From Saprospiraceae bacterium (lineage in GTDB: Bacteria > Bacteroidota > Bacteroidia > Bacteroidales > JAIPBB01), in assembly GCA_021739805.1 (NCBI GenBank), contig JAIPBB010000187.1, forward strand, positions 1-10,536: DNA of 10,536 nt. The letters are read 5' to 3'. Both the position numbers and the translations under genes were made by a program. Positions within the stretch are counted from its first letter, which is position 1; every line of letters begins with the position of its first letter. This document shows positions 1,356 through 9,513 of the stretch, one piece after another. The notes under the pieces were generated by a model. The model was not told the DNA's origin. It searched no databases and saw only the letters and a list, made by a program, of their open reading frames with translations.

Positions 1356-1397
1356 GAATAGCGAGTAACGAGCAACAAGAAACGAGAAATGAGTAAA
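1356..1397 (+). repeat. Degenerate 7-bp tandem repeat running into qmoB
   Basis: Six in-phase heptamers: GAATAGC, GAGTAAC, GAGCAAC, AAGAAAC, GAGAAAT, GAGTAAA. The fifth unit contains the A and T of the qmoB start codon, and the sixth covers the G of ATG plus codons 2 and 3. The repeat therefore supplies the whole ribosome-binding region of qmoB. Confidence 0.75.
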
Positions 1398-3524
1398 AAC
1401 ATAGGATTATATATTTGTAAAGGTTGCGAAATCGGCAATTGCATTGATGTTGATGCTTTGTCGGCTATTGCTAATGATGAATATAAAATCCAAAATTGTA
1501 AGATTCATGATTCGCTTTGTAGTCCGGAGGCTGTTGAGTTAATTAAAACAGATATTTCCGAAAATAATTTTGAAGGAATTATTATTGCTGCTTGTTCGCC
1601 AAGGTATTATACTAAAGAGTTTGATTTTGGTGATAATATCATTAATGAAAGAGTAAATCTTCGTGAGCAGGTTGTTTGGACACATGATGCTGGAGATGAA
1701 GACACACAAATGCTTGCTGATGATCTTCTCAGAATGAGTATTGCAAAAGTTCAGAATATTGTAAATCCAAAAGCATTTATTGCTGAAAATCTAAGTTCAG
1801 ATGTTTTGGTTGTCGGTGGAGGAATTACAGGAATAACTGCTGCTATTGAAGGAGCAAAGGCAGGATACAAAATGATTCTAATTGAAAAGGAAAATGAGCT
1901 AGGCGGCTATGCGAAAATTCTTCATAAGCAACTTCCACAAAAATCTCCTTATAAAAATCTTGAAGAGCCTACAATTAATTCTAAAATTAAAGAACTCGAA
2001 AACTATAAAAATATTGAAGTTTTTACTTCTTCTGAAATTCTTGAAATATCCGGTCAGCCCGGATTATTTGAAGTTAAGTTTGACAAAAAAGGAGAGACGA
2101 AAAATTTAAAAGTAGCATCAATTGTTATGGCAACAGGATGGAAACCTTATGATGCAAACAAACTCATGGAGTTCAAATATTCAGATTTTCCGGATGTTAT
2201 TACCAATGTAGAGTTTGAAAAAATGGCCGCTGAAAACAAAATTCTAAAGCCATCGGATGGTAAAAAAGTCAAAAGTATTTTGTTTATTCAATGTGCCGGT
2301 TCACGTGACGAAAAGCATCTTTCGTATTGCTCAAATTTCTGCTGTGGAACGACTTTGAAGCAGGCAAAATATATTCGTGAAAACAATCCTGATGCTTTAG
2401 TTTATGTTGTTTATAAGGATATTAGAACTCCCGGTAGATATGAGCATTTTTATAAGGAAATGCAAAATGATGACAGACTTTTTCTAACCAAAGGTGAAGT
2501 TAATGAAGTTATTCAATCCAATGCCGGACTAAGTGTTGGTGTTAAAAACACCTTGATTGGAGAAGATATTTCCTTGAATGTTGATTTGGTAGTTTTGGCA
2601 ACGGGAATGACTCCTGCAAACACTGAAGATTTGAATTTAACCTACAGACTTGGAAAAGGATTACCCGAGCTAAAATACAATTTCACTGATTCTCATTTTA
2701 TATGTTTTCCTTACGAAACAAGAAGAACAGGAATTTACGCAGCAGGTTCAGTTCGTGCTCCAATGGATATGAGTTCAAGCATGGAAGATGCAATGGGTGC
2801 GACTTTGAAAGCAATTCAATGTCTGGAAAGCACCAAACGTGGCGAAGCTGTTCATCCAAGAGCAGGGGATAAGTCCTTTCCTGAGTTGTATTTGGATAGA
2901 TGTACTGATTGCAAACGCTGCACTGAAGAATGTCCTTTCGGAGCTTATGATGAAACTGAAAAAGGAACTCCATTACCAAACCCAAATCGTTGTCGTAGGT
3001 GCGGAATTTGTCTTGGTGCCTGTCCGGAGCGAATTATCAATTTTGCTGATTTTTCTGTTAATAGTATTTCTTCGATGATTAAGGCTGTTCACATTCCTGA
3101 TGAATTTGAAGAGAAACCAAGAATATTGATTTTTGCTTGTGAAAATGATGCTTATCCGGCAATTGATATGGCTGGTTATAAGCGATTAAAATATAGTGCT
3201 TTTGTAAGGATAATTCCTGTAAGATGCATTGGTTCAGTAAATAAAGTATGGATTAGCGATGCACTTTCACAAGGCTTTGACGGCATAATGTTGTTGGGGT
3301 GTAAGCCTGGAGATGATTATCAATGTCATTTTATTCAGGGTAGTGAATTGATGGAAACAAGGGGAGAAAATATTCAGGAAACATTGGATAAAATGATGCT
3401 TGAACCTGAAAGAATAAGAACTGAATTTGTCGAAATTACTGACTATAAAAAAATACCGGAATTGATTAATGATTATATAGAAACAATAGAAGAAATTGGA
3501 CCGAATCCGTTTAAGGATATGTAG
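1389..3524 (+). CDS. qmoB: QmoB-like HdrA/MvhD fusion subunit
   Basis: The 711-residue product has the full domain order of QmoB. An HdrA-type N-terminal segment (about 1-130) carries C10, C13, C18, C44 and AACSPRYY at 67-74. An FAD-binding Rossmann motif VVGGGITGI lies at 141-149, a second ATG nucleotide motif at 248-250, the HdrA SYCSNFCC motif at 312-319 and VVLATG at 401-406. Two ferredoxin-type [4Fe-4S] motifs have cysteines at 505, 508, 511, 515 and at 535, 538, 541, 545. A C-terminal MvhD-like domain spans about 577-705 with C584, C613, C638 and C646. In known Qmo complexes this is the large soluble subunit that pairs with QmoA on the membrane subunit QmoC. The ATG at 1389 fits the conserved start MSKNIGLYICKGC; no Shine-Dalgarno sequence is visible and the leader is a heptamer repeat. 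The 210-bp gap after qmoA is long for this normally compact operon. Confidence 0.9.
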   Translation: MSKNIGLYICKGCEIGNCIDVDALSAIANDEYKIQNCKIHDSLCSPEAVELIKTDISENNFEGIIIAACSPRYYTKEFDFGDNIINERVNLREQVVWTHDAGDEDTQMLADDLLRMSIAKVQNIVNPKAFIAENLSSDVLVVGGGITGITAAIEGAKAGYKMILIEKENELGGYAKILHKQLPQKSPYKNLEEPTINSKIKELENYKNIEVFTSSEILEISGQPGLFEVKFDKKGETKNLKVASIVMATGWKPYDANKLMEFKYSDFPDVITNVEFEKMAAENKILKPSDGKKVKSILFIQCAGSRDEKHLSYCSNFCCGTTLKQAKYIRENNPDALVYVVYKDIRTPGRYEHFYKEMQNDDRLFLTKGEVNEVIQSNAGLSVGVKNTLIGEDISLNVDLVVLATGMTPANTEDLNLTYRLGKGLPELKYNFTDSHFICFPYETRRTGIYAAGSVRAPMDMSSSMEDAMGATLKAIQCLESTKRGEAVHPRAGDKSFPELYLDRCTDCKRCTEECPFGAYDETEKGTPLPNPNRCRRCGICLGACPERIINFADFSVNSISSMIKAVHIPDEFEEKPRILIFACENDAYPAIDMAGYKRLKYSAFVRIIPVRCIGSVNKVWISDALSQGFDGIMLLGCKPGDDYQCHFIQGSELMETRGENIQETLDKMMLEPERIRTEFVEITDYKKIPELINDYIETIEEIGPNPFKDM

Positions 3525-3525
3525 T

Positions 3526-3588
3526 TGGAAATTGGAAATTAGAAATTGGAAATTAGAGTGTTATATTGTTAAATTGTTAAATTGTTAA
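3526..3588 (+). repeat. Heptamer array followed by octamer array
   Basis: One base after the qmoB stop codon come heptamers TGGAAAT, TGGAAAT, TAGAAAT, TGGAAAT, TAGAGTG (3526-3560). A short junction is followed by three exact copies of the octamer ATTGTTAA at 3565-3588. Nothing suggests a terminator: there is no GC-rich stem before a T run. Confidence 0.8.
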
Positions 3589-3650
3589 TTTGTTGCAAAA
3601 CTTATATGAACTTTTATGCCTTTTATGGTTAAATTTTAGAAATTAGTACT

Positions 3651-3725
3651 AGTCAAACCGAGTGCCACGCCTTGATGAATTGGATGTTTAGACTGAAATT
3701 TGCAGCGTGGTGTATCGAGGTTGAG
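3651..3725. repeat. Dispersed inverted-repeat element, copy 1
   Basis: AGTCAAACCGAGTGCCACGC at the left, then a 34-bp spacer and GCGTGGTGTATCGAGG at the right. GCCACGC (3664-3670) can pair with GCGTGGT (3705-3711, one G-T pair). A second copy with the same ends and nearly the same spacer lies at 9429-9497. It sits between qmoB and qmoC and encodes nothing visible. Confidence 0.75.
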
Positions 3726-3753
3726 TTAAAAAGATGGTTGTTCAAACTATTAA

Positions 3754-3795
3754 AAAGGAATAATGAATATCGAATACTGAATGTTGAATAAAGAA
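3754..3795 (+). repeat. Degenerate 7-bp tandem repeat upstream of qmoC
   Basis: Six in-phase heptamers with constant GAA at the end: AAAGGAA, TAATGAA, TATCGAA, TACTGAA, TGTTGAA, TAAAGAA. The array ends 15 bp before the qmoC start codon and forms most of its leader. Confidence 0.8.
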
Positions 3796-3810
3796 GTTTT
3801 CAAGAACTAA

Positions 3811-4896
3811 ATGAATATTAAGCCAAATATAGAATTCATCCGGGATCTGAGAATGGAAAGCGGAGCAGACCTAAAGCAGTGTATGCAATGCGGAACTTGT
3901 TCGGTGGTTTGTGATTTGTCACCTGATGATAATCCATTTCCAAGAAAAGAGATGATTTGGGCGAGTTGGGGATTAATGGATAAATTAGTTTCTGACCCCG
4001 ACGTTTGGCTTTGTCATAATTGTGGAGATTGCACAACTTATTGTCCCAGAGATGTTAAACCGGGAGATGTTTTAGCCGCTGTTAGAAGCAAAGTTTATGA
4101 GAAATATGCAAAACCGGCTTTCTTATTTAAACTTTTAAAGAAACCGATTTTTCTGCCAATTACAATTGCTATTCCTGTTTTTATAATTGGATTGATTCTC
4201 TTTCTTAACGGGACTTTAGCTATACCTGAAGGAGATGTAAACTATTCGAAGTTTTTTCCGCATATGCAGTTGAATATTTCATTTTCTACTCTTGTTCTGA
4301 TTGTTTTACTTGGATTGGTTTTAAGTATTAGAAGCTTTGTTTCGGATATAAAACAGCATCTGCCAAAGCAAAAGAAAAAGAGTTTTATGAAAAGCTTGAT
4401 AGAATTTAAAATAGAAATTCTTTTACATAAACAATTTAATAAATGTCAGGAAAATAAATTCAGGTCAACAGCTCATTTACTGGTTTTGTGGGGTTTTATA
4501 TTATTGCTGATTGTTACTGCTTTTGCCATACTTGCTGTAGTGTTTTTTGAATATCCAATGGGATTATTTCATCCTGTCAAAATCACCGGAAACATTGCAG
4601 CAGCAATGCTTGTGATTGGTTTGTTGATAATGATGTTTCAGAGAGTTAAAGGCGAAAACGTAGCCGGCAAAAAGAATTATTTCGACTGGCTATTTTTGAT
4701 TTCTTTGTTTCTGTTAACAATCTCAGGTTTACTGGTTGAAATAGCCCGTTTCGACAATTGGAGTCTTGCTTACCATATTTATTTTGTTCATCTGGTTTTA
4801 GTTTGGATGCTAATAATTTATGCTCCTTACACCAAATTTGCACATGTGTTTTATAGGTCAACCGCGATTATTTTGTGTAAAATGTATGGGAGGTAA
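3811..4896 (+). CDS. qmoC: QmoC-like iron-sulfur/cytochrome b membrane subunit
   Basis: The 361-residue product has two parts. The first 100 residues are an HdrC-like domain with two [4Fe-4S] motifs, cysteines 24, 27, 30, 34 and 68, 71, 74, 78 (the last followed by P). The rest is a membrane domain with hydrophobic segments at roughly 113-133, 157-175, 221-245, 261-277, 293-312 and 321-340, separated by a basic loop at about 180-220. Histidines in or near the helices (222, 322, 327, 345) are candidate heme b ligands. This fused layout is typical of QmoC, which exchanges electrons with menaquinone and anchors QmoAB at the cytoplasmic membrane. The ATG at 3811 follows CAAGAACTAA, with no clear ribosome-binding site. 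It lies 286 bp after qmoB, a gap made of repeats. A DsrM/HdrE-type protein is the main alternative but is less likely next to qmoAB. Confidence 0.88.
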   Translation: MNIKPNIEFIRDLRMESGADLKQCMQCGTCSVVCDLSPDDNPFPRKEMIWASWGLMDKLVSDPDVWLCHNCGDCTTYCPRDVKPGDVLAAVRSKVYEKYAKPAFLFKLLKKPIFLPITIAIPVFIIGLILFLNGTLAIPEGDVNYSKFFPHMQLNISFSTLVLIVLLGLVLSIRSFVSDIKQHLPKQKKKSFMKSLIEFKIEILLHKQFNKCQENKFRSTAHLLVLWGFILLLIVTAFAILAVVFFEYPMGLFHPVKITGNIAAAMLVIGLLIMMFQRVKGENVAGKKNYFDWLFLISLFLLTISGLLVEIARFDNWSLAYHIYFVHLVLVWMLIIYAPYTKFAHVFYRSTAIILCKMYGR

Positions 4897-4951: not shown

Positions 4952-5470
4952 TTAATCACACATTTGTTGTTTAATATATTCAGCTAATAGTTCTAATCTT
5001 TTTTCTGTATTGATAGATTGTTTCGGTAATAATTTATTTCCTTCTAAATCCCTGTCTATTTGATTTATTGATTGAAGTCCAAGATGTTTACAGAAGACAA
5101 ATTTTGCTTTAAGAGAAGTTAAATAGATGGAAGCAGACATGGATTTATCACCAAAGAAAATAATGTATTTCTCTATATCTGTTAATTCTTTAAATAAACG
5201 TTCAATGTTTTTCGGTTCTTGAATAATTTCTACTGAAGCTTCAGTTTTACCATCTTTTGCTTTATAGAGTGGTTTATCATAGCTATTTGTAATTCTAAAT
5301 TCATATTTGTTAGAATATTCTATTTCAAGCAATTTTAATAATCTGTCTAAGTTATCACCTGTTATTCCACTAACTGGTTTTCCGTTCTTTTCTTCTTCTT
5401 GACCGGGAACACTAAAAACAAATGCTATATCTGTTCTGTTTCCTTTGTTAAAATGTGCTGAGTTTTCCAT
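4952..5470 (-). CDS. Small uracil-DNA glycosylase-like protein
   Basis: The 172-residue product has no signal peptide or membrane segment. Residues 16-45 (AFVFSVPGQ, then a stretch with EEE, NGKPVSG, TGDNLDRLL) resemble the first motif of the uracil-DNA glycosylase superfamily, which in family 4 reads about GEAPGEDED.GRPFVGPAG..LD. Later come FRITNSYDKP (58-67), a strand like YIIFFGDKS (102-110), and KHLGLQSIN (128-136), which could be a variant of the HPS-like motif holding the base-binding histidine (H129). I infer a DNA base-excision or nucleic-acid-binding fold; substrate and activity are unknown. The family-4 iron-sulfur cysteines are not apparent (only C127 and C171). It lies 75 bp downstream of fic on the same strand and may be cotranscribed. 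A weak TATCTTTA box 34-41 bp before its ATG could instead give it its own promoter. Confidence 0.6.
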   Translation of the reverse strand: MENSAHFNKGNRTDIAFVFSVPGQEEEKNGKPVSGITGDNLDRLLKLLEIEYSNKYEFRITNSYDKPLYKAKDGKTEASVEIIQEPKNIERLFKELTDIEKYIIFFGDKSMSASIYLTSLKAKFVFCKHLGLQSINQIDRDLEGNKLLPKQSINTEKRLELLAEYIKQQMCD

Positions 5471-5545: not shown

Positions 5546-6667
5546 TCACCCTCCCAAAATCCTCATCAAATCATTATTTACATAAAATACTTCTACTCCT
5601 TGTTTTTTTGGTGTAAGAATTTTGTTTTCAACCAATTCATTAAGGTATTTCGTTAAAGTTGTTCTTGATGTTTTCTCTATGACTTCCCCTAAAGTTAAGG
5701 GTTTTATGTATGGCTGACTAAAAATTACTTCGTTCACTTCTTTGTTATACCATTTAACTTTTGTCCTTGCATAATCAAGTGTACTCTCCATTTGTTCAAG
5801 AATTTCATTAATCATATTATTAGTTAGAATAGAAGTTTTTTCAACAGCTTCAAGCATAAATTCAACCCAGTTTTCCCACGAATTTCTTAGAGTTACTGAA
5901 CCTAAATTGTAATAGTAGTCTTCTTTATTTACAATAATATATTTTGATAAATAAAGTGTAGGTTGCGATAATAGACCTTTGTTTATCAGGTATAATAAAT
6001 TCAGAATTCTTCCTGTTCTACCATTACCATCCTGAAATGGATGTATTGCTTCGAATTGATAATGAGCAATGCACATTTTCAACAACGGGTCGGTCGGATA
6101 TTTTTCATCATCATTAAGGAATTCTATAAGATTATCAATTAATCCTTCAATTAATTCTTCGCCCTGAGGGGGAGTGTAAATAATTTCGCCTGACCTGAAA
6201 TCACTTTGCCCTCTTTTAATCACAACCTTTGCTTGTGGTGGTCGAAAACCTGATTGAGTTTCCTTAATTTGTTTGAAAATATTTGTGATTAAAGTCGTAT
6301 CTATTGTATTATTTTGCTGTAAATGTGCGTAGCCAGCCCAAAGAGCCTCTCTATATTTCAAAACTTCCTTGGTCGCCGGATTAATATTATTCTCTTTAAG
6401 TGTATCTGAAACAGCTTTATATAGTTCATCTTCGGTAGTGAAAATATTTTCTATTTCAGTTGAAGTCTTTGCCTCTTGTAATGCAATTGTATTCACAAGC
6501 ATCAAAGGATTAGGCAGTCTGTTAATATTCCCATTTACAGTAGCAAGTGCTCTTGAAGCAGCAACTAATTTCTTAAGTATTTGAGGATTATTATCCAGAT
6601 TTTTGCTTGGTGGTAGAACAGGCAAATCATTATATGGTATTGTCCTGTCAAATTTTGTTTTACTCAT
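5546..6667 (-). CDS. fic: Class II Fic protein adenylyltransferase with C-terminal winged helix
   Basis: The 373-residue product contains the complete Fic active-site motif HPFQDGNGRTGR at 209-220, used by Fic enzymes to transfer AMP from ATP to a hydroxyl side chain of a target protein. An N-terminal Fic_N region (about 10-85) carries the inhibitory-helix motif (S/T)xxxE(G/N) as S69-TEI-E73-N74, which marks a class II, self-inhibited Fic. Length, layout and the position of the inhibitory glutamate resemble the Shewanella oneidensis Fic protein (from memory). The C-terminal 60 residues (about 312-371) look like a winged helix-turn-helix (LTLGEVIEKTSRTTLTKYLNELVENKIL). A DNA-binding tail fits autoregulation: the start codon abuts a 70-bp repeat array of TGTCCA/TGGACA sites and the predicted promoter lies inside it. 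The gene reads against its qmo and cysH neighbours, which suggests an independent insertion of fic plus the downstream glycosylase-like gene. Targets are unknown. Confidence 0.92.
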   Translation of the reverse strand: MSKTKFDRTIPYNDLPVLPPSKNLDNNPQILKKLVAASRALATVNGNINRLPNPLMLVNTIALQEAKTSTEIENIFTTEDELYKAVSDTLKENNINPATKEVLKYREALWAGYAHLQQNNTIDTTLITNIFKQIKETQSGFRPPQAKVVIKRGQSDFRSGEIIYTPPQGEELIEGLIDNLIEFLNDDEKYPTDPLLKMCIAHYQFEAIHPFQDGNGRTGRILNLLYLINKGLLSQPTLYLSKYIIVNKEDYYYNLGSVTLRNSWENWVEFMLEAVEKTSILTNNMINEILEQMESTLDYARTKVKWYNKEVNEVIFSQPYIKPLTLGEVIEKTSRTTLTKYLNELVENKILTPKKQGVEVFYVNNDLMRILGG

Positions 6668-6670
6668 ATT

Positions 6671-6880
6671 TGTCCAATTTTTAGGTTTTTCTGAACATTA
6701 TGCAAATATATGTTCATTTTTTGTCATATTCCAAACCTTTTGTCCAATATTTTCAATATTCTGGACAAATAGCTGAAATGTGTCCATTTTTTTGCATTAC
6801 TTAGGTGCTTTGTCCAATTATATTAATTTTCTGGACAAATAGCCAAAATCTGTCCATTTGCTGAACATTGATGCTTATTC
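6671..6880. promoter_or_regulatory. Three tandem 70-bp units with phased TGTCCA/TGGACA sites
   Basis: Units start at 6671, 6741 and 6811, each with TGTCCAAT. At offset 21 each has TGGACA or TGAACA (6692, 6762, 6832), and at offset 40 TGTCCA or TGTTCA (6711, 6781, 6851). An extra TGAACA lies at 6862. Site-to-site steps are 21, 19 and 30 bp, all near multiples of a helical turn, so the sites face one side of the DNA. Orientation alternates, giving overlapping inverted pairs. The unit nearest fic is the most diverged and contains the predicted fic promoter; the array ends four bases from the fic start codon. The best explanation is a repressor array, possibly bound by the winged helix of Fic itself. 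Confidence 0.7.
6703..6735 (-). promoter_or_regulatory. Predicted fic promoter, Bacteroidota type
   Basis: Read on the minus strand: TTTG (6735-6732), a 21-bp spacer, then TATATTTG (6710-6703), an exact match to the Bacteroidota -7 consensus TAnnTTTG. Transcription would start around 6697, giving a leader of about 30 nt. One TGTTCA site (6711) lies in the spacer and a TGAACA site (6692) near the start point. Confidence 0.55.
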
Positions 6881-6916: not shown

Positions 6917-6924
6917 TATTTTTG
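6917..6924 (+). promoter_or_regulatory. Possible cysH -7 box
   Basis: TATTTTTG matches the TAnnTTTG consensus and lies 22 bp before the cysH ATG. No good TTTG/TTG is seen about 20 bp upstream of it, so the call is weak. Confidence 0.35.
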
Positions 6925-6946
6925 CGCACTGAATAAAACTATTGTG

Positions 6947-7648
6947 ATGAGCGAGAATATTATCAATGAACTAAACGAAAGATTTAAAAATCAAGCTCCT
7001 GAAAAAGTAATTGAATTCTTTTTAGGTAAATATAAAAAGCGAATTGCCCTATCATCAAGTATGGGTGCAGAAGACCAGGTTCTTACTCATATGATGATTG
7101 GAGTTGATAAAAAAGCGAAAATCTTTACTCTCGATACTGGGCGTATGTTTCCTGAAACTTATGATGTGATTGATAAAACCTGCATGAAGTATGGGATTGA
7201 AATTCAAATTTACTTTCCTTTAAATACCGATGTTGAAGAAATGGTAAATTCCAAGGGAATAAACCTTTTCTACGAAAGTGTTGAAAATAGGCAATATTGC
7301 TGCAATATCAGGAAAGTTGAACCTTTGAATAGAGCATTTCATGGTTTGGATGCCTGGATTTGTGGTTTAAGACATGAGCAATCTGTAACTCGTCAGGAGA
7401 TGCAAATGATTGAATGGGATGAAGTTCATAATTTAATAAAAATTAATCCTTTAATCAATTGGACAGAAGAACAAGTCTGGGAATACATTCGCAAAAATAA
7501 TGTCCCTTATAATATCCTTCATGATAAAGGATTTCCAAGCATAGGCTGTCGTCCATGTACAAGAGCTGTTAAAAAAGGCGAAGATATCCGAACAGGTCGC
7601 TGGTGGTGGGAAGATCCTGAGCACAAGGAATGTGGATTGCATAAATGA
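6947..7648 (+). CDS. cysH: CysH-type [4Fe-4S] adenylylsulfate (APS) reductase
   Basis: The 233-residue product is a full-length CysH family enzyme that reduces activated sulfate to sulfite in the cytoplasm. The nucleotide-binding region is at SSSMGAEDQVL (36-46), LDTGRMFPET at 62-71, and the substrate-binding GLRHEQSVTR at 140-149. The catalytic cysteine is C229 in the C-terminal ECGLH. The pair C118-C119 and C201-x2-C204 are the four ligands of the [4Fe-4S] cluster that marks APS reductases, so APS rather than PAPS is the predicted substrate, with thioredoxin as usual donor (EC 1.8.4.10). I chose ATG 6947; a GTG at 6944 directly before it is also in frame. It is divergent from fic. Its position close to qmoABC is notable because Qmo normally serves the unrelated AprBA enzyme. 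Confidence 0.92.
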   Translation: MSENIINELNERFKNQAPEKVIEFFLGKYKKRIALSSSMGAEDQVLTHMMIGVDKKAKIFTLDTGRMFPETYDVIDKTCMKYGIEIQIYFPLNTDVEEMVNSKGINLFYESVENRQYCCNIRKVEPLNRAFHGLDAWICGLRHEQSVTRQEMQMIEWDEVHNLIKINPLINWTEEQVWEYIRKNNVPYNILHDKGFPSIGCRPCTRAVKKGEDIRTGRWWWEDPEHKECGLHK

Positions 7649-7888: not shown

Positions 7889-9313
7889 ATGAAAACTCCA
7901 TTAAAATTATTTTTACTTATAACAGTAATTTTTGCATTTATTGCTTGCTCATCCGACCATAAGAGTAAAAAGCCAATAAAACAAAAAGAAAAGAAAGAGA
8001 CAAAAGTTCAGGAATCATTCGAAACGGGAATTGTGCTGAAGGATATAAAATGCAGGCAAAACCCAACTTATTCGTTTGCACTGTATCTTCCAAAATCTTA
8101 TTCCATTGCAAACAAATTCCCCGTTATCTATATTTTTGATTCGCATGCAAAAGGTAAATACCCTGTTGAACTCTATAAAGATTTGGCAGAAAAATATGGA
8201 TATATTCTCATTGGCTCTAATAATTCAGAAAATGGACTTGCTCCTGAAATTTCAAATAATATCACAACGACTTTAATTAATGAATGTAATAGTCGTTTCT
8301 CAATTGATATAAAACAAGTTTTCACAATGGGTTTTTCAGGTGGAGCAAGAGTTGCAAGCTCAATTGCAATTAACAAAGGTGGAATTGCAGGAGTTATCGC
8401 TTGTGGTGCAGGATTGGCAGGAGATAAGACAATTAATAATACTAATTTTCATTTTATGGGAATGGTTGGAAAGCAGGATTTCAACTATATGGAGATTCTT
8501 AATTTGGAGAACCAATTAATAAATATGCAAATCAAAAACAATATTTGTGTTTTCGACGGTAAACATGAATGGCCAACTGACGAAACTATGGAAGAAGCTT
8601 TTAAATGGCTGGAAATTAATTCTATGAAAAGCGGACTTAAATCTCCTGATAATTTATTAGTTGAAAATGTGAAACAAAATTTCGATTCAAAAATCAAAAA
8701 AGCTGAAGATAAAAAGCATTTTCTTGAACAATTTGAGTACAATAAAAAAGCAATTAATTTTCTTGATGGATTAACGGACGTAATCTCATACAAATCAAAG
8801 ATTATAGCAATTGAAACATCAAAAGAATATATAAACGAAAGACAAAAGCAATTAGAAAATTTTAGTTTGGAAGCTGGTCTTCAAAACAAATACGCCCAGG
8901 CATTTCAAACACAAAATATTTCATGGTGGAAAAGAGAAATCAATTCCATGAATCAGCAAATTAAAAGCAATAAAAATCCGGAACAATCCCTAATTTTCAA
9001 ACGGGTAATAAATTACTTAAGCCTTATTGCATATATGTATTCCGACAAAACCGTTAAAACCAACGATTTTGCAAATGCTGATAAATTCCTTCAAATCTAT
9101 GAATTAGTTGACCCAACAAATTCAGAAGTTTACTATTTGAAAGCCACAGTCAATATCAAACAAGGAAACAAACAAAAGGCTATTGAAAATCTAAAACTTG
9201 CAATAAAAATTGGTTTTGAAGATTTGAAAAGATTAAATGCAGATTTGGAATTTGAGTCAATCAGGCAAACAGTGGAATTTAAGGAAATGATTGAAAAGCT
9301 AAGTTCAGATTAG
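7889..9313 (+). CDS. Lipoprotein with alpha/beta-hydrolase domain and TPR-like C-terminus
   Basis: The 474-residue product starts with a lipoprotein signal peptide: positive start, hydrophobic core LKLFLLITVIFAFIA and lipobox cysteine C20, followed by SSDHKSKK. It should be anchored at the cell envelope. Residues 45-245 look like an esterase-type alpha/beta hydrolase: FPVIYIFDSHAKGKYP (77-92), nucleophile elbow GFSGGAR with S150, then D197 in GKQDF and H226 in DGKHEWP as candidate triad members. GFSGG followed by GKHEWP resembles the polyhydroxybutyrate-depolymerase/feruloyl-esterase-like group. Residues 250-400 are charged and mostly helical, and 395-445 (LQIYELVDPTN, YYLKATVNIKQGNKQKAIENLKLAI) resemble a tetratricopeptide repeat that may bind a partner. 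The substrate is unknown. It has its own predicted promoter, so it probably is not in an operon with cysH. Confidence 0.7.
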   Translation: MKTPLKLFLLITVIFAFIACSSDHKSKKPIKQKEKKETKVQESFETGIVLKDIKCRQNPTYSFALYLPKSYSIANKFPVIYIFDSHAKGKYPVELYKDLAEKYGYILIGSNNSENGLAPEISNNITTTLINECNSRFSIDIKQVFTMGFSGGARVASSIAINKGGIAGVIACGAGLAGDKTINNTNFHFMGMVGKQDFNYMEILNLENQLINMQIKNNICVFDGKHEWPTDETMEEAFKWLEINSMKSGLKSPDNLLVENVKQNFDSKIKKAEDKKHFLEQFEYNKKAINFLDGLTDVISYKSKIIAIETSKEYINERQKQLENFSLEAGLQNKYAQAFQTQNISWWKREINSMNQQIKSNKNPEQSLIFKRVINYLSLIAYMYSDKTVKTNDFANADKFLQIYELVDPTNSEVYYLKATVNIKQGNKQKAIENLKLAIKIGFEDLKRLNADLEFESIRQTVEFKEMIEKLSSD

Positions 9314-9421: not shown

Positions 9422-9428
9422 TTGTAAT

Positions 9429-9497
9429 AGTCAGACCGAGTGCCACGCTTTGATGAAATTAGAATTTGGCACTGATTGATTGCGTGGCGTATCGAGG
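9429..9497. repeat. Dispersed inverted-repeat element, copy 2
   Basis: AGTCAGACCGAGTGCCACGC, a 33-bp spacer, then GCGTGGCGTATCGAGG. GCCACGC (9442-9448) and GCGTGGC (9482-9488) are perfect inverted repeats. It matches the copy at 3651-3725 at both ends but not in the spacer, which suggests conserved arms around a free loop. A fragment, CAGACCGAGT, recurs at 9546-9555. Confidence 0.75.
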
Positions 9498-9513
9498 AAT
9501 GACGGTAAAGGAA

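What the first reader, a model, noticed from the sequence alone, without database searches (positions are those of the whole stretch)
6671..6880. Helically phased operator array of three 70-bp units at a Fic gene
Ten TGTCCA/TGGACA-type hexamers start at 6671, 6692, 6711, 6741, 6762, 6781, 6811, 6832, 6851 and 6862. The steps (21, 19, 30, repeated, then 11) keep all sites close to one helical face, and the unit period is exactly 70 bp. Hexamers and spacing are kept while much of the rest has diverged, which suggests selection for protein binding. The array begins four bases from the fic start codon and surrounds the predicted fic promoter. Fic has a C-terminal winged helix, so an AMP-transferase that counts its own level by cooperative binding is a plausible, possibly undescribed circuit.
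Basis: partly seen in the sequence, partly recalled or inferred. Interest (0 to 1): 0.75.

Follow-up and report, generated by a model that had tools for sequence, protein, structure and literature searches.

The report
Self-binding operator array of SoFic toxins
A bacterial anti-phage enzyme gene carries, right across its own promoter, a ruler-like row of short DNA signs, and comparison with many related genes indicates that the enzyme itself reads these signs, different branches of the family using different signs, probably to hold its own production down.

Summary
The array is real: ten TGTYCA/TGRACA hexamers in three 70-bp units before a SoFic-type fic gene (0.38 expected). Of 79 fic upstream regions with at least 100 nt, 76 carry four or more sites with the same steps, while neighbouring genes differ. 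In 38 whole genomes a strict array pattern occurs at fic in 24 and at two other places; in 148 drawn Bacteroidota genomes it was not found. Diverged SoFic genes keep the spacing but use other words: TGTCGA, TGTWWA, ACMTTAA, ACGGTAA; one close relative uses TGTACA. The word follows the Fic recognition helix: residue 336 ranks first of 373 columns, and a later sample gave 12 of 13 as predicted, one uncalled. So Fic's own winged helix very likely binds; autorepression is the likeliest outcome. Fic-HTH autorepression is known for CccR (PMC9755527), so this is a new variant: multi-site arrays and a recognition code in the anti-phage SoFic family. Binding, cooperativity and repression are untested.

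The parts
5546..6667 (-). fic (373 aa), SoFic-type AMP-transferase: Fic_N + Fic + SoFic-like_C winged helix
   Evidence: Pfam PF13784, PF02661, PF21248 above cut-offs; PADLOC SoFic 1.3e-102; NCBIfam SoFic equivalog 352.8 bits, below its cut-off of 550
5546..5803 (-). C-terminal winged-helix domain, residues 289-373
   Evidence: AlphaFold2 model from 12 sequences, mean pLDDT 89.7; best PDB matches are the same domain of S. oneidensis SoFic, then ArsR-type repressors
5627..5665 (-). recognition helix, residues 335-347 (codon 336 at 5660-5662)
   Evidence: helix 335-347 in the full-length model; residue 336 ranks first of 373 columns for association with operator class
6671..6867 (.). operator array of ten TGTYCA/TGRACA hexamers
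6671..6716 (.). unit 1, next to fic: TGTCCA 6671, TGAACA 6692, TGTTCA 6711
   Evidence: the TGRACA-N13-TGTYCA-N15-TGRACA layout is shared with orthologues
6741..6786 (.). unit 2: TGTCCA 6741, TGGACA 6762, TGTCCA 6781
6811..6867 (.). unit 3 plus one more site: TGTCCA 6811, TGGACA 6832, TGTCCA 6851, TGAACA 6862
6703..6710 (-). predicted -7 promoter element TATATTTG of fic, inside the 13-bp spacer between TGAACA and TGTTCA
   Evidence: exact TAnnTTTG in this slot in 21 of the 67 clade loci (of 75) that have such a spacer; the Bacteroidota consensus is recalled, not from a call
6732..6735 (-). candidate -33 element (TTTG on the minus strand) 21 bp before the -7 element
   Evidence: sequence; consensus recalled; weak

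Best explanation
The array is the operator of the fic gene, read by the Fic protein's own C-terminal winged helix. Fic subunits, probably as dimers, place their recognition helices on TGTYCA half-sites set 19-21 bp apart. In the window the sites closest to fic flank the predicted -7 promoter element, so bound Fic would keep RNA polymerase off and hold a self-toxic AMP-transferase at a low level; the further units would raise the effective local concentration and sharpen the response. Shown here: the array, its conservation, its linkage to fic rather than to neighbours, and the covariation of operator word with residue 336. Inferred: binding, dimer arrangement, repression, cooperativity, and release during phage infection.
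For: 506 hexamers in the 20.4 kb before fic in 79 loci (24.8 per kb) against 1.0 per kb in the rest of the same loci and about 34 expected. 71 upstream neighbours fall in 60 families, and four window neighbours tested have relatives in 0 of 80 loci (flanks of at most 3 kb). Strict array at fic in 24 of 38 genomes, at 2 other places, 0 for the reversed control; 0 of 148 drawn Bacteroidota genomes. Similar spacing with other words before diverged SoFic genes. Helix key against word over 189 distinct loci: SRT 78 of 78 TGTYCA; KRQ/HRQ 18 TGTCGA, 3 no call; AEN/SEN 17 ACMTTAA, 3 no call; AEK 4 of 4 ACGGTAA; [ST]R[PIL] 23 TGTWWA, 4 no call. L071 alone among the clade members with an assigned ORF has V336 (T in 75 of 75 others), and its six sites are TGTACA. 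Later sample: 12 of 13 as predicted, 1 no call, 0 wrong. Of 12 genomes with two or more SoFic loci, 5 have at least two called operators, each word different and matching its own helix (G224 three; G400, G341, G302, G407 two each); the other 7 have one call or none. SoFic is toxic enough that the wild type could not be cloned behind one lac operator (PMC12249575, Results and Discussion read).
Against: No binding or expression data exist for this protein. The covariation is confounded with kinship: only two switches are separable from clade history (L071 alone; AEK as one group inside AEN, tree, without support values), and columns 38, 256, 43, 35 and 149, outside the winged helix, also rank third to seventh. 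46 of 189 loci got no call with the six words, and two calls were odd (L222, L253). Of 11 plasmid loci, 3 were called TGTCGA, 1 TGTWWA on two sites only, 6 not called, 1 had no ORF. The exact -7 element is in the fic-proximal spacer of only 21 of 67 loci. Two arrays lie away from fic, near AbiEii-type genes, so sites outside fic, or relics, exist.
Confidence: 0.86

Rival explanations
1. Another host regulator (a global or defence-island regulator) binds the array and controls fic; Fic's winged helix does something else.
For: No binding data exist. In E. coli SoFic the C-terminal domain controls toxicity through contacts with the catalytic domain, and no DNA role was considered (PMC12249575). 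Two arrays lie away from fic.
Against: The word changes with residue 336 of Fic itself, including two switches inside clades. In five genomes paralogues use different words, which one trans regulator could not explain. No neighbour travels with the array in the flanks tested, and the strict array was not found in 148 drawn genomes.
Confidence: 0.06
2. The array is mainly a sponge or scaffold: Fic bound to about ten half-sites is held inactive, so the DNA acts as an antitoxin; repression is secondary.
For: More sites than occlusion of one promoter seems to need (mean 6.5 per locus in the clade). DNA binding changes the enzymatic activity of the related CbFic2 (PMC10628234 abstract). Apo E. coli SoFic and ATP-bound Shewanella SoFic differ in the position of the C-terminal domain (PMC12249575).
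Against: Sites sit just before fic and, in 21 of 67 clade loci with such a spacer, the window among them, flank an exact -7 element, which a sponge would not need.
Confidence: 0.1
3. A tandem-repeat or mobile-element feature without regulatory role, kept by recent duplication.
For: The 70-bp units look like tandem duplication in this window; fic is flanked by integron-attC-like motifs in some Bacteroidales.
Against: Hexamers and steps are kept across loci at 61-83% protein identity while the spacers differ, and the spacing recurs with other words.
Confidence: 0.01

Closest known systems
CccR of Yersinia pseudotuberculosis (PMC9755527, PDB 7XUX)
   Same: Class II Fic with C-terminal HTH that binds and represses its own promoter; lacZ, gel-shift and footprint data (passages read). 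Matches the window Fic weakly in sequence (2.9e-10) and fold (TM 0.57).
   Different: One operator, two 10-bp arms 26 bp apart, against arrays of mostly 4-11 hexamers with 13- and 15-bp spacers; dimer with DNA-binding helices about 70 A apart; a type VI-secreted effector, not a defence gene.
SoFic / Sofic anti-phage protein (3eqx, 3zcn; PMC12249575)
   Same: Same architecture; best fold match 3zcn (TM 0.84, 40% identity); PADLOC SoFic profile.
   Different: In the passages and sections read no operator or DNA binding is described; [quoted passage not shown] An AS1-like small gene, the antitoxin of E. coli, was not searched for here.
CbFic2 (PMC10628234, PDB 8CIL)
   Same: Fic enzyme whose C-terminal wHTH binds DNA, which changes its activity (abstract and passages read).
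   Different: Tested on random DNA sequences; no operator given.
Phd-Doc and AbiE toxin-antitoxin autoregulation
   Same: Toxin gene repressed through repeated operator sites at its own promoter (recalled; AbiE with several inverted repeats seen in a search listing only, PMC7319586).
   Different: There the antitoxin is the repressor; here the toxin enzyme itself appears to be.

Membership tests
SoFic (Fic_N-Fic-SoFic-like_C) | Three Pfam domains above gathering scores | tested here: met
   PF13784 80.2 bits, PF02661 58.5, PF21248 44.3
SoFic (Fic_N-Fic-SoFic-like_C) | Active Fic motif HPFx[DE]GNGRxxR and N-terminal inhibitory motif [ST]xxxE[GN] (motifs recalled) | tested here: met
   HPFQDGNGRTGR and STEIEN in the translation; H209, G214-R217, R220 and S69, E73, N74 invariant in 24 rows
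SoFic (Fic_N-Fic-SoFic-like_C) | NCBIfam NF046030 equivalog cut-off | tested here: not met
   352.8 bits against 550: a relative of SoFic, not a strict equivalog by that model
SoFic (Fic_N-Fic-SoFic-like_C) | Anti-phage activity | not testable with these tools
   PADLOC profile match only
CccR-type autorepressing Fic | Binds and represses its own promoter | not testable with these tools
   covariation supports binding; no bench data
CccR-type autorepressing Fic | Single operator of two arms 26 bp apart | tested here: not met
   arrays with steps 19, 21, 30
Two-gene (type II) toxin-antitoxin operon | Conserved small partner gene next to the toxin gene | tested here: inconclusive
   the ORF after fic (4952-5470) has relatives in 0 of 80 loci; small ORFs such as AS1 were not searched for

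The most novel reading that the evidence does not exclude
SoFic enzymes carry a private DNA recognition code centred on one residue, and the array is itself the antitoxin: about ten half-sites hold Fic subunits in an inactive, DNA-bound form. When a phage degrades or remodels host DNA, the bound enzyme is freed and the promoter is opened at once, so the array senses loss of the host genome. Branches use different words so that several SoFic paralogues can coexist in one cell.
Probability: 0.1. Interest if true: 0.9.

Novelty: new variant of a known kind. Interest (0 to 1): 0.68.

Why it matters
How SoFic, a single-protein anti-phage toxin found in defence islands, is kept quiet and then switched on is an open question (PMC12249575, Discussion read). 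This gives the C-terminal domain a specific proposed job, names its likely DNA sites in many species, and supplies a ready test: swap one residue in the isolated domain, and the preferred hexamer should follow. The set of different wHTH-operator pairs could also be a source of small repressors that do not cross-talk.

Tried and rejected
Helical-face claim at 10.5 bp: over pair distances of 8-110 bp the mean cosine at 10.5 is 0.03 (TGTYCA), 0.45 (TGTCGA), 0.63 (TGTWWA) and 0.40 (AMNTTAA); best periods are 10.0, 10.1, 10.3 and 10.2. So the phasing is real but nearer 10.0-10.3 bp. That A-tract-rich spacers might set this repeat is recalled chemistry, not tested.

Relatives in viral contigs: none confirmed by tblastn. 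No whole genome is held for the window.

A control reading the upstream regions backwards was poor: it called 33 of 189 TGTWWA and 9 TGTACA (the reversed flank ATATGT reads TGTATA) and none for the other four words. Dinucleotide shuffles: 23 of 945 called, 17 TGTWWA, 5 TGTYCA, 1 ACMTTAA. TGTWWA is the least certain class.

Dropped rows and limits: one search kept the best 80 of 142 confirmed relatives. L015 and L065 (under 100 nt upstream) dropped. The 148 genomes include two (G004, G019) whose fic arrays the strict pattern misses. In one search, 16 of 191 loci got no assigned ORF (among them L010 and L039, which carry arrays, and L057), 2 of 30. In one search, 12 duplicates and 2 short regions dropped. 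L222 (TPK, called ACGGTAA) and L253 (SRV, called TGTCGA, with two TGTAAA too) do not fit the code and were left out. In one search, 16 of the 18 new above-cut-off matches were examined (G594 and G586, short frames, not fetched); 14 had an ORF and 13 a prediction (L264 none). L068's chosen ORF is not the family's and was left out of clade counts. The operator classes were defined after looking at the same sequences; only one search is out of sample, and it comes from one taxonomic family, other members of which were in the first sample.

Neighbour regulation: array as promoter of cysH thought unlikely, since cysH has relatives in 0 of 80 fic loci (flanks of at most 3 kb) and its own candidate -7 element lies outside the array at 6917-6924.

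Papers seen only as passages: PMC2701414 and PMC3667792 and PMC12894286; none of those passages adds a SoFic operator.

Full report
THE OBSERVATION. The window encodes a 373-aa Fic protein on the minus strand (5546-6667) with Fic_N, Fic and SoFic-like_C domains and a strong PADLOC SoFic match (the stricter NCBIfam equivalog cut-off is not met). Seven are exact TGTCCA, three are TGAACA/TGTTCA. Steps are 21, 19, 30 repeated, then 11. In the 260 bases before fic, 0.38 such sites are expected and at most 4 were seen in 20,000 Markov sequences; ten are present. At 10.0 bp per turn all ten share one face; at 10.5 bp each 70-bp unit is turned by a third of a turn.

CONSERVATION. A scan of GTDB genomes confirmed 142 relatives and kept the best 80 loci, with Fic proteins 61-83% identical to the window's; by record titles they include Bacteroidales, Pedobacter, Mucilaginibacter, Dyadobacter and Algoriphagus. 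Of 79 regions with at least 100 nt upstream (78 loci plus the window), 76 have four or more sites; L071, L052 and L057 do not. Density is 24.8 per kb in the 260 nt before fic against 1.0 per kb in the rest of the same loci; 506 sites against 34 expected. The commonest consecutive steps are 21 inward (115), 19 outward (110), 30 same-way (48), 22 inward (33) and 11 inward (14). Apart from A/T-rich tracts after each hexamer, the flanks show only weak preferences.

LINKAGE. The four window neighbours tested (cysH, a UDG-like ORF, qmoC, ORF 7889-9313) have relatives in 0 of the 80 fic loci, whose flanks are at most 3 kb; 71 upstream neighbours fall into 60 families. It was at fic in 24 (contig lengths and positions compared with the fic loci), at two other places, and nowhere for the reversed control. 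It was not found in 148 drawn Bacteroidota genomes, 35 of which hold a SoFic-like C-terminal domain above cut-off. The strict pattern is insensitive: 14 of the 38 genomes were missed, including some whose arrays are plain to the eye such as L012, and two such genomes (G004, G019) are among the 148.

OTHER WORDS, SAME GRAMMAR. PF21248 proteins occur above cut-off in 88 of 395 Bacteroidota genomes. Upstream of many of the more distant ones lie different repeated words: TGTCGA; TGTAAA/TGTATA; ACATTAA/ACCTTAA; ACGGTAA. Their commonest spacings are again 19-20 outward and 21-22 inward, with 30-31, 11, 40-41 or 51-52 in some classes, and best-fit periods are 10.0-10.3 bp in all four classes tested. 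TGTCGA is used in Bacteroidota and on plasmids of Mesorhizobium, Martelella and Cedecea. Of the 11 plasmid loci, 3 were called TGTCGA, 1 TGTWWA on two sites only, 6 not called, 1 had no ORF assigned. A shared geometry with changing words is what one expects of one protein family whose DNA-reading helix changes.

RECOGNITION CODE. In the AlphaFold2 models the C-terminal domain is a winged helix with recognition helix 335-347; its nearest solved structures are SoFic's own domain, then ArsR-type repressors. With a fixed rule for calling operators, 189 distinct loci gave: SRT (residues 334-336) 78 of 78 TGTYCA; KRQ 16 TGTCGA and 3 without call; HRQ 2 of 2 TGTCGA; AEN 16 ACMTTAA and 3 without call; SEN 1 ACMTTAA; AEK 4 of 4 ACGGTAA; SRP, SRI, TRL, TRP and SRL 23 TGTWWA and 4 without call; 46 without call in all; two odd calls, L222 and L253. 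Shuffled sequences are called in 23 of 945 cases. Ranking all 373 alignment columns by association with operator class puts residue 336 first (0.867), 333 second and 334 eighth; columns outside the domain (38, 256, 43, 35, 149) hold ranks three to seven, the mark of kinship (141 loci, L222 and L253 left out, at most 15 per class, 100 draws). Two switches are separable from clade history. L071, among the clade members with an assigned ORF, alone has valine 336 where 75 of 75 others have threonine, and its six sites read TGTACA; it has five further private residues, but 336 is the only one at an otherwise invariant position. The AEK group lies inside the AEN group (tree of the first 300 residues, midpoint root, no support values) and reads ACGGTAA for ACMTTAA. 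Both switches are at residue 336. Lysine for asparagine going with G for A fits the usual chemistry of base reading (recalled). A later sample, not used to set the rule, gave 12 of 13 operators as predicted, one without call and none wrong. Of 12 genomes with two or more SoFic loci, 5 have at least two called operators, and each word differs and matches its own helix: three in G224, two each in G400, G341, G302 and G407; the other 7 have one call or none. Caveats: the classes were drawn from the same sequences, and shared descent inflates the table.

PROMOTER AND MECHANISM. In the window the Bacteroidota-type -7 element TATATTTG (consensus recalled) lies at 6703-6710 inside the 13-bp spacer between TGAACA 6692 and TGTTCA 6711. 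An exact TAnnTTTG sits in this slot in 21 of 67 clade loci that have such a spacer, about 0.08 per position against 0.003 overall; in the other 46 it does not. Fic bound there should exclude RNA polymerase. Negative autoregulation suits a protein whose wild type could not be cloned behind one lac operator, and whose C-terminal domain sits differently in an apo E. coli and an ATP-bound Shewanella structure (PMC12249575). Whether ATP or auto-AMPylation changes DNA binding is a natural next question; nothing here tests it.

PRIOR WORK. CccR of Yersinia pseudotuberculosis is a Fic-HTH protein that represses its own promoter through one wide inverted repeat, by lacZ fusion, gel shift and footprint (PMC9755527, passages). 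A 2009 paper suggested that HTH domains fused to Fic may regulate fic (PMC2686095, passages). CbFic2 binds random DNA (PMC10628234, abstract and passages); that paper states that DNA binding by SoFic has not been demonstrated. In the main text of the E. coli SoFic paper 'HTH', 'winged' and 'transcription' do not occur. Ten full-text searches listed no description of SoFic operators; several listings were capped, subscription papers and preprints are not in that library, and SoFic entries in the PDB (9tch, 9tc4, 9tcl, 9tb0) may belong to work that I did not see.

VERDICT. As a kind of circuit it is known from one relative; as a system shared through the SoFic family, with helically spaced multi-site operators and a residue-336 code, it appears new. 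Binding by Fic is very likely, repression likely, cooperativity plausible, and a DNA-as-antitoxin role is a bold possibility.

Noticed in passing
L004, L009, L010, L012, L017, L020 (GTTAGGC 195-214 nt before the fic start); L002, L005, L006, L008, L010, L012, L015, L017 (GCCTAAC 11-33 nt past a nominal point 1,100 nt from the fic start): fic with its array looks bounded by integron attC core motifs (motif recalled) in several Bacteroidales, as if it were a gene cassette with its own promoter (80 loci and the window scanned). A clear integron integrase was found in 1 of 10 of these genomes (G003, the genome of L008); weaker recombinase matches ring in all 10 and in all 14 controls.
   Followed up: partly
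L111 (from about 2765) and L112 (about 2640-2770): Two arrays without fic in the 6.3-6.5 kb fetched, in genomes whose resident fic (L024, L025) has the same kind of array; both lie near AbiEii-type toxin genes. Either relics of a lost fic or sites for control of other defence genes in trans.
   Followed up: partly
L134, L171, L177, L182, L187, L255, L256, L264; L161-L163, L258; L126, L176; L145, L146, L148: SoFic relatives with other helix keys (xxK, ERK, SRS, SRQ/ARQ) got no call or were not called; by eye some have still other repeated words (for example TGTTAAG, AAGTCAAA), so more operator classes probably exist.
   Followed up: no
window 1389-4896 and 6944-7648: Heterodisulfide-reductase-like and QmoC genes, and across the array a CysH-type reductase: a sulfur-metabolism neighbourhood; qmoC and cysH have relatives in 0 of 80 fic loci.
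   Followed up: no
window 3645-3725 and 9428-9500: Two similar intergenic stretches (agtcaRaccgagtgccacgc ... gcgtggYgtatcgagg, read by eye) that look like copies of a dispersed repeat.
   Followed up: no
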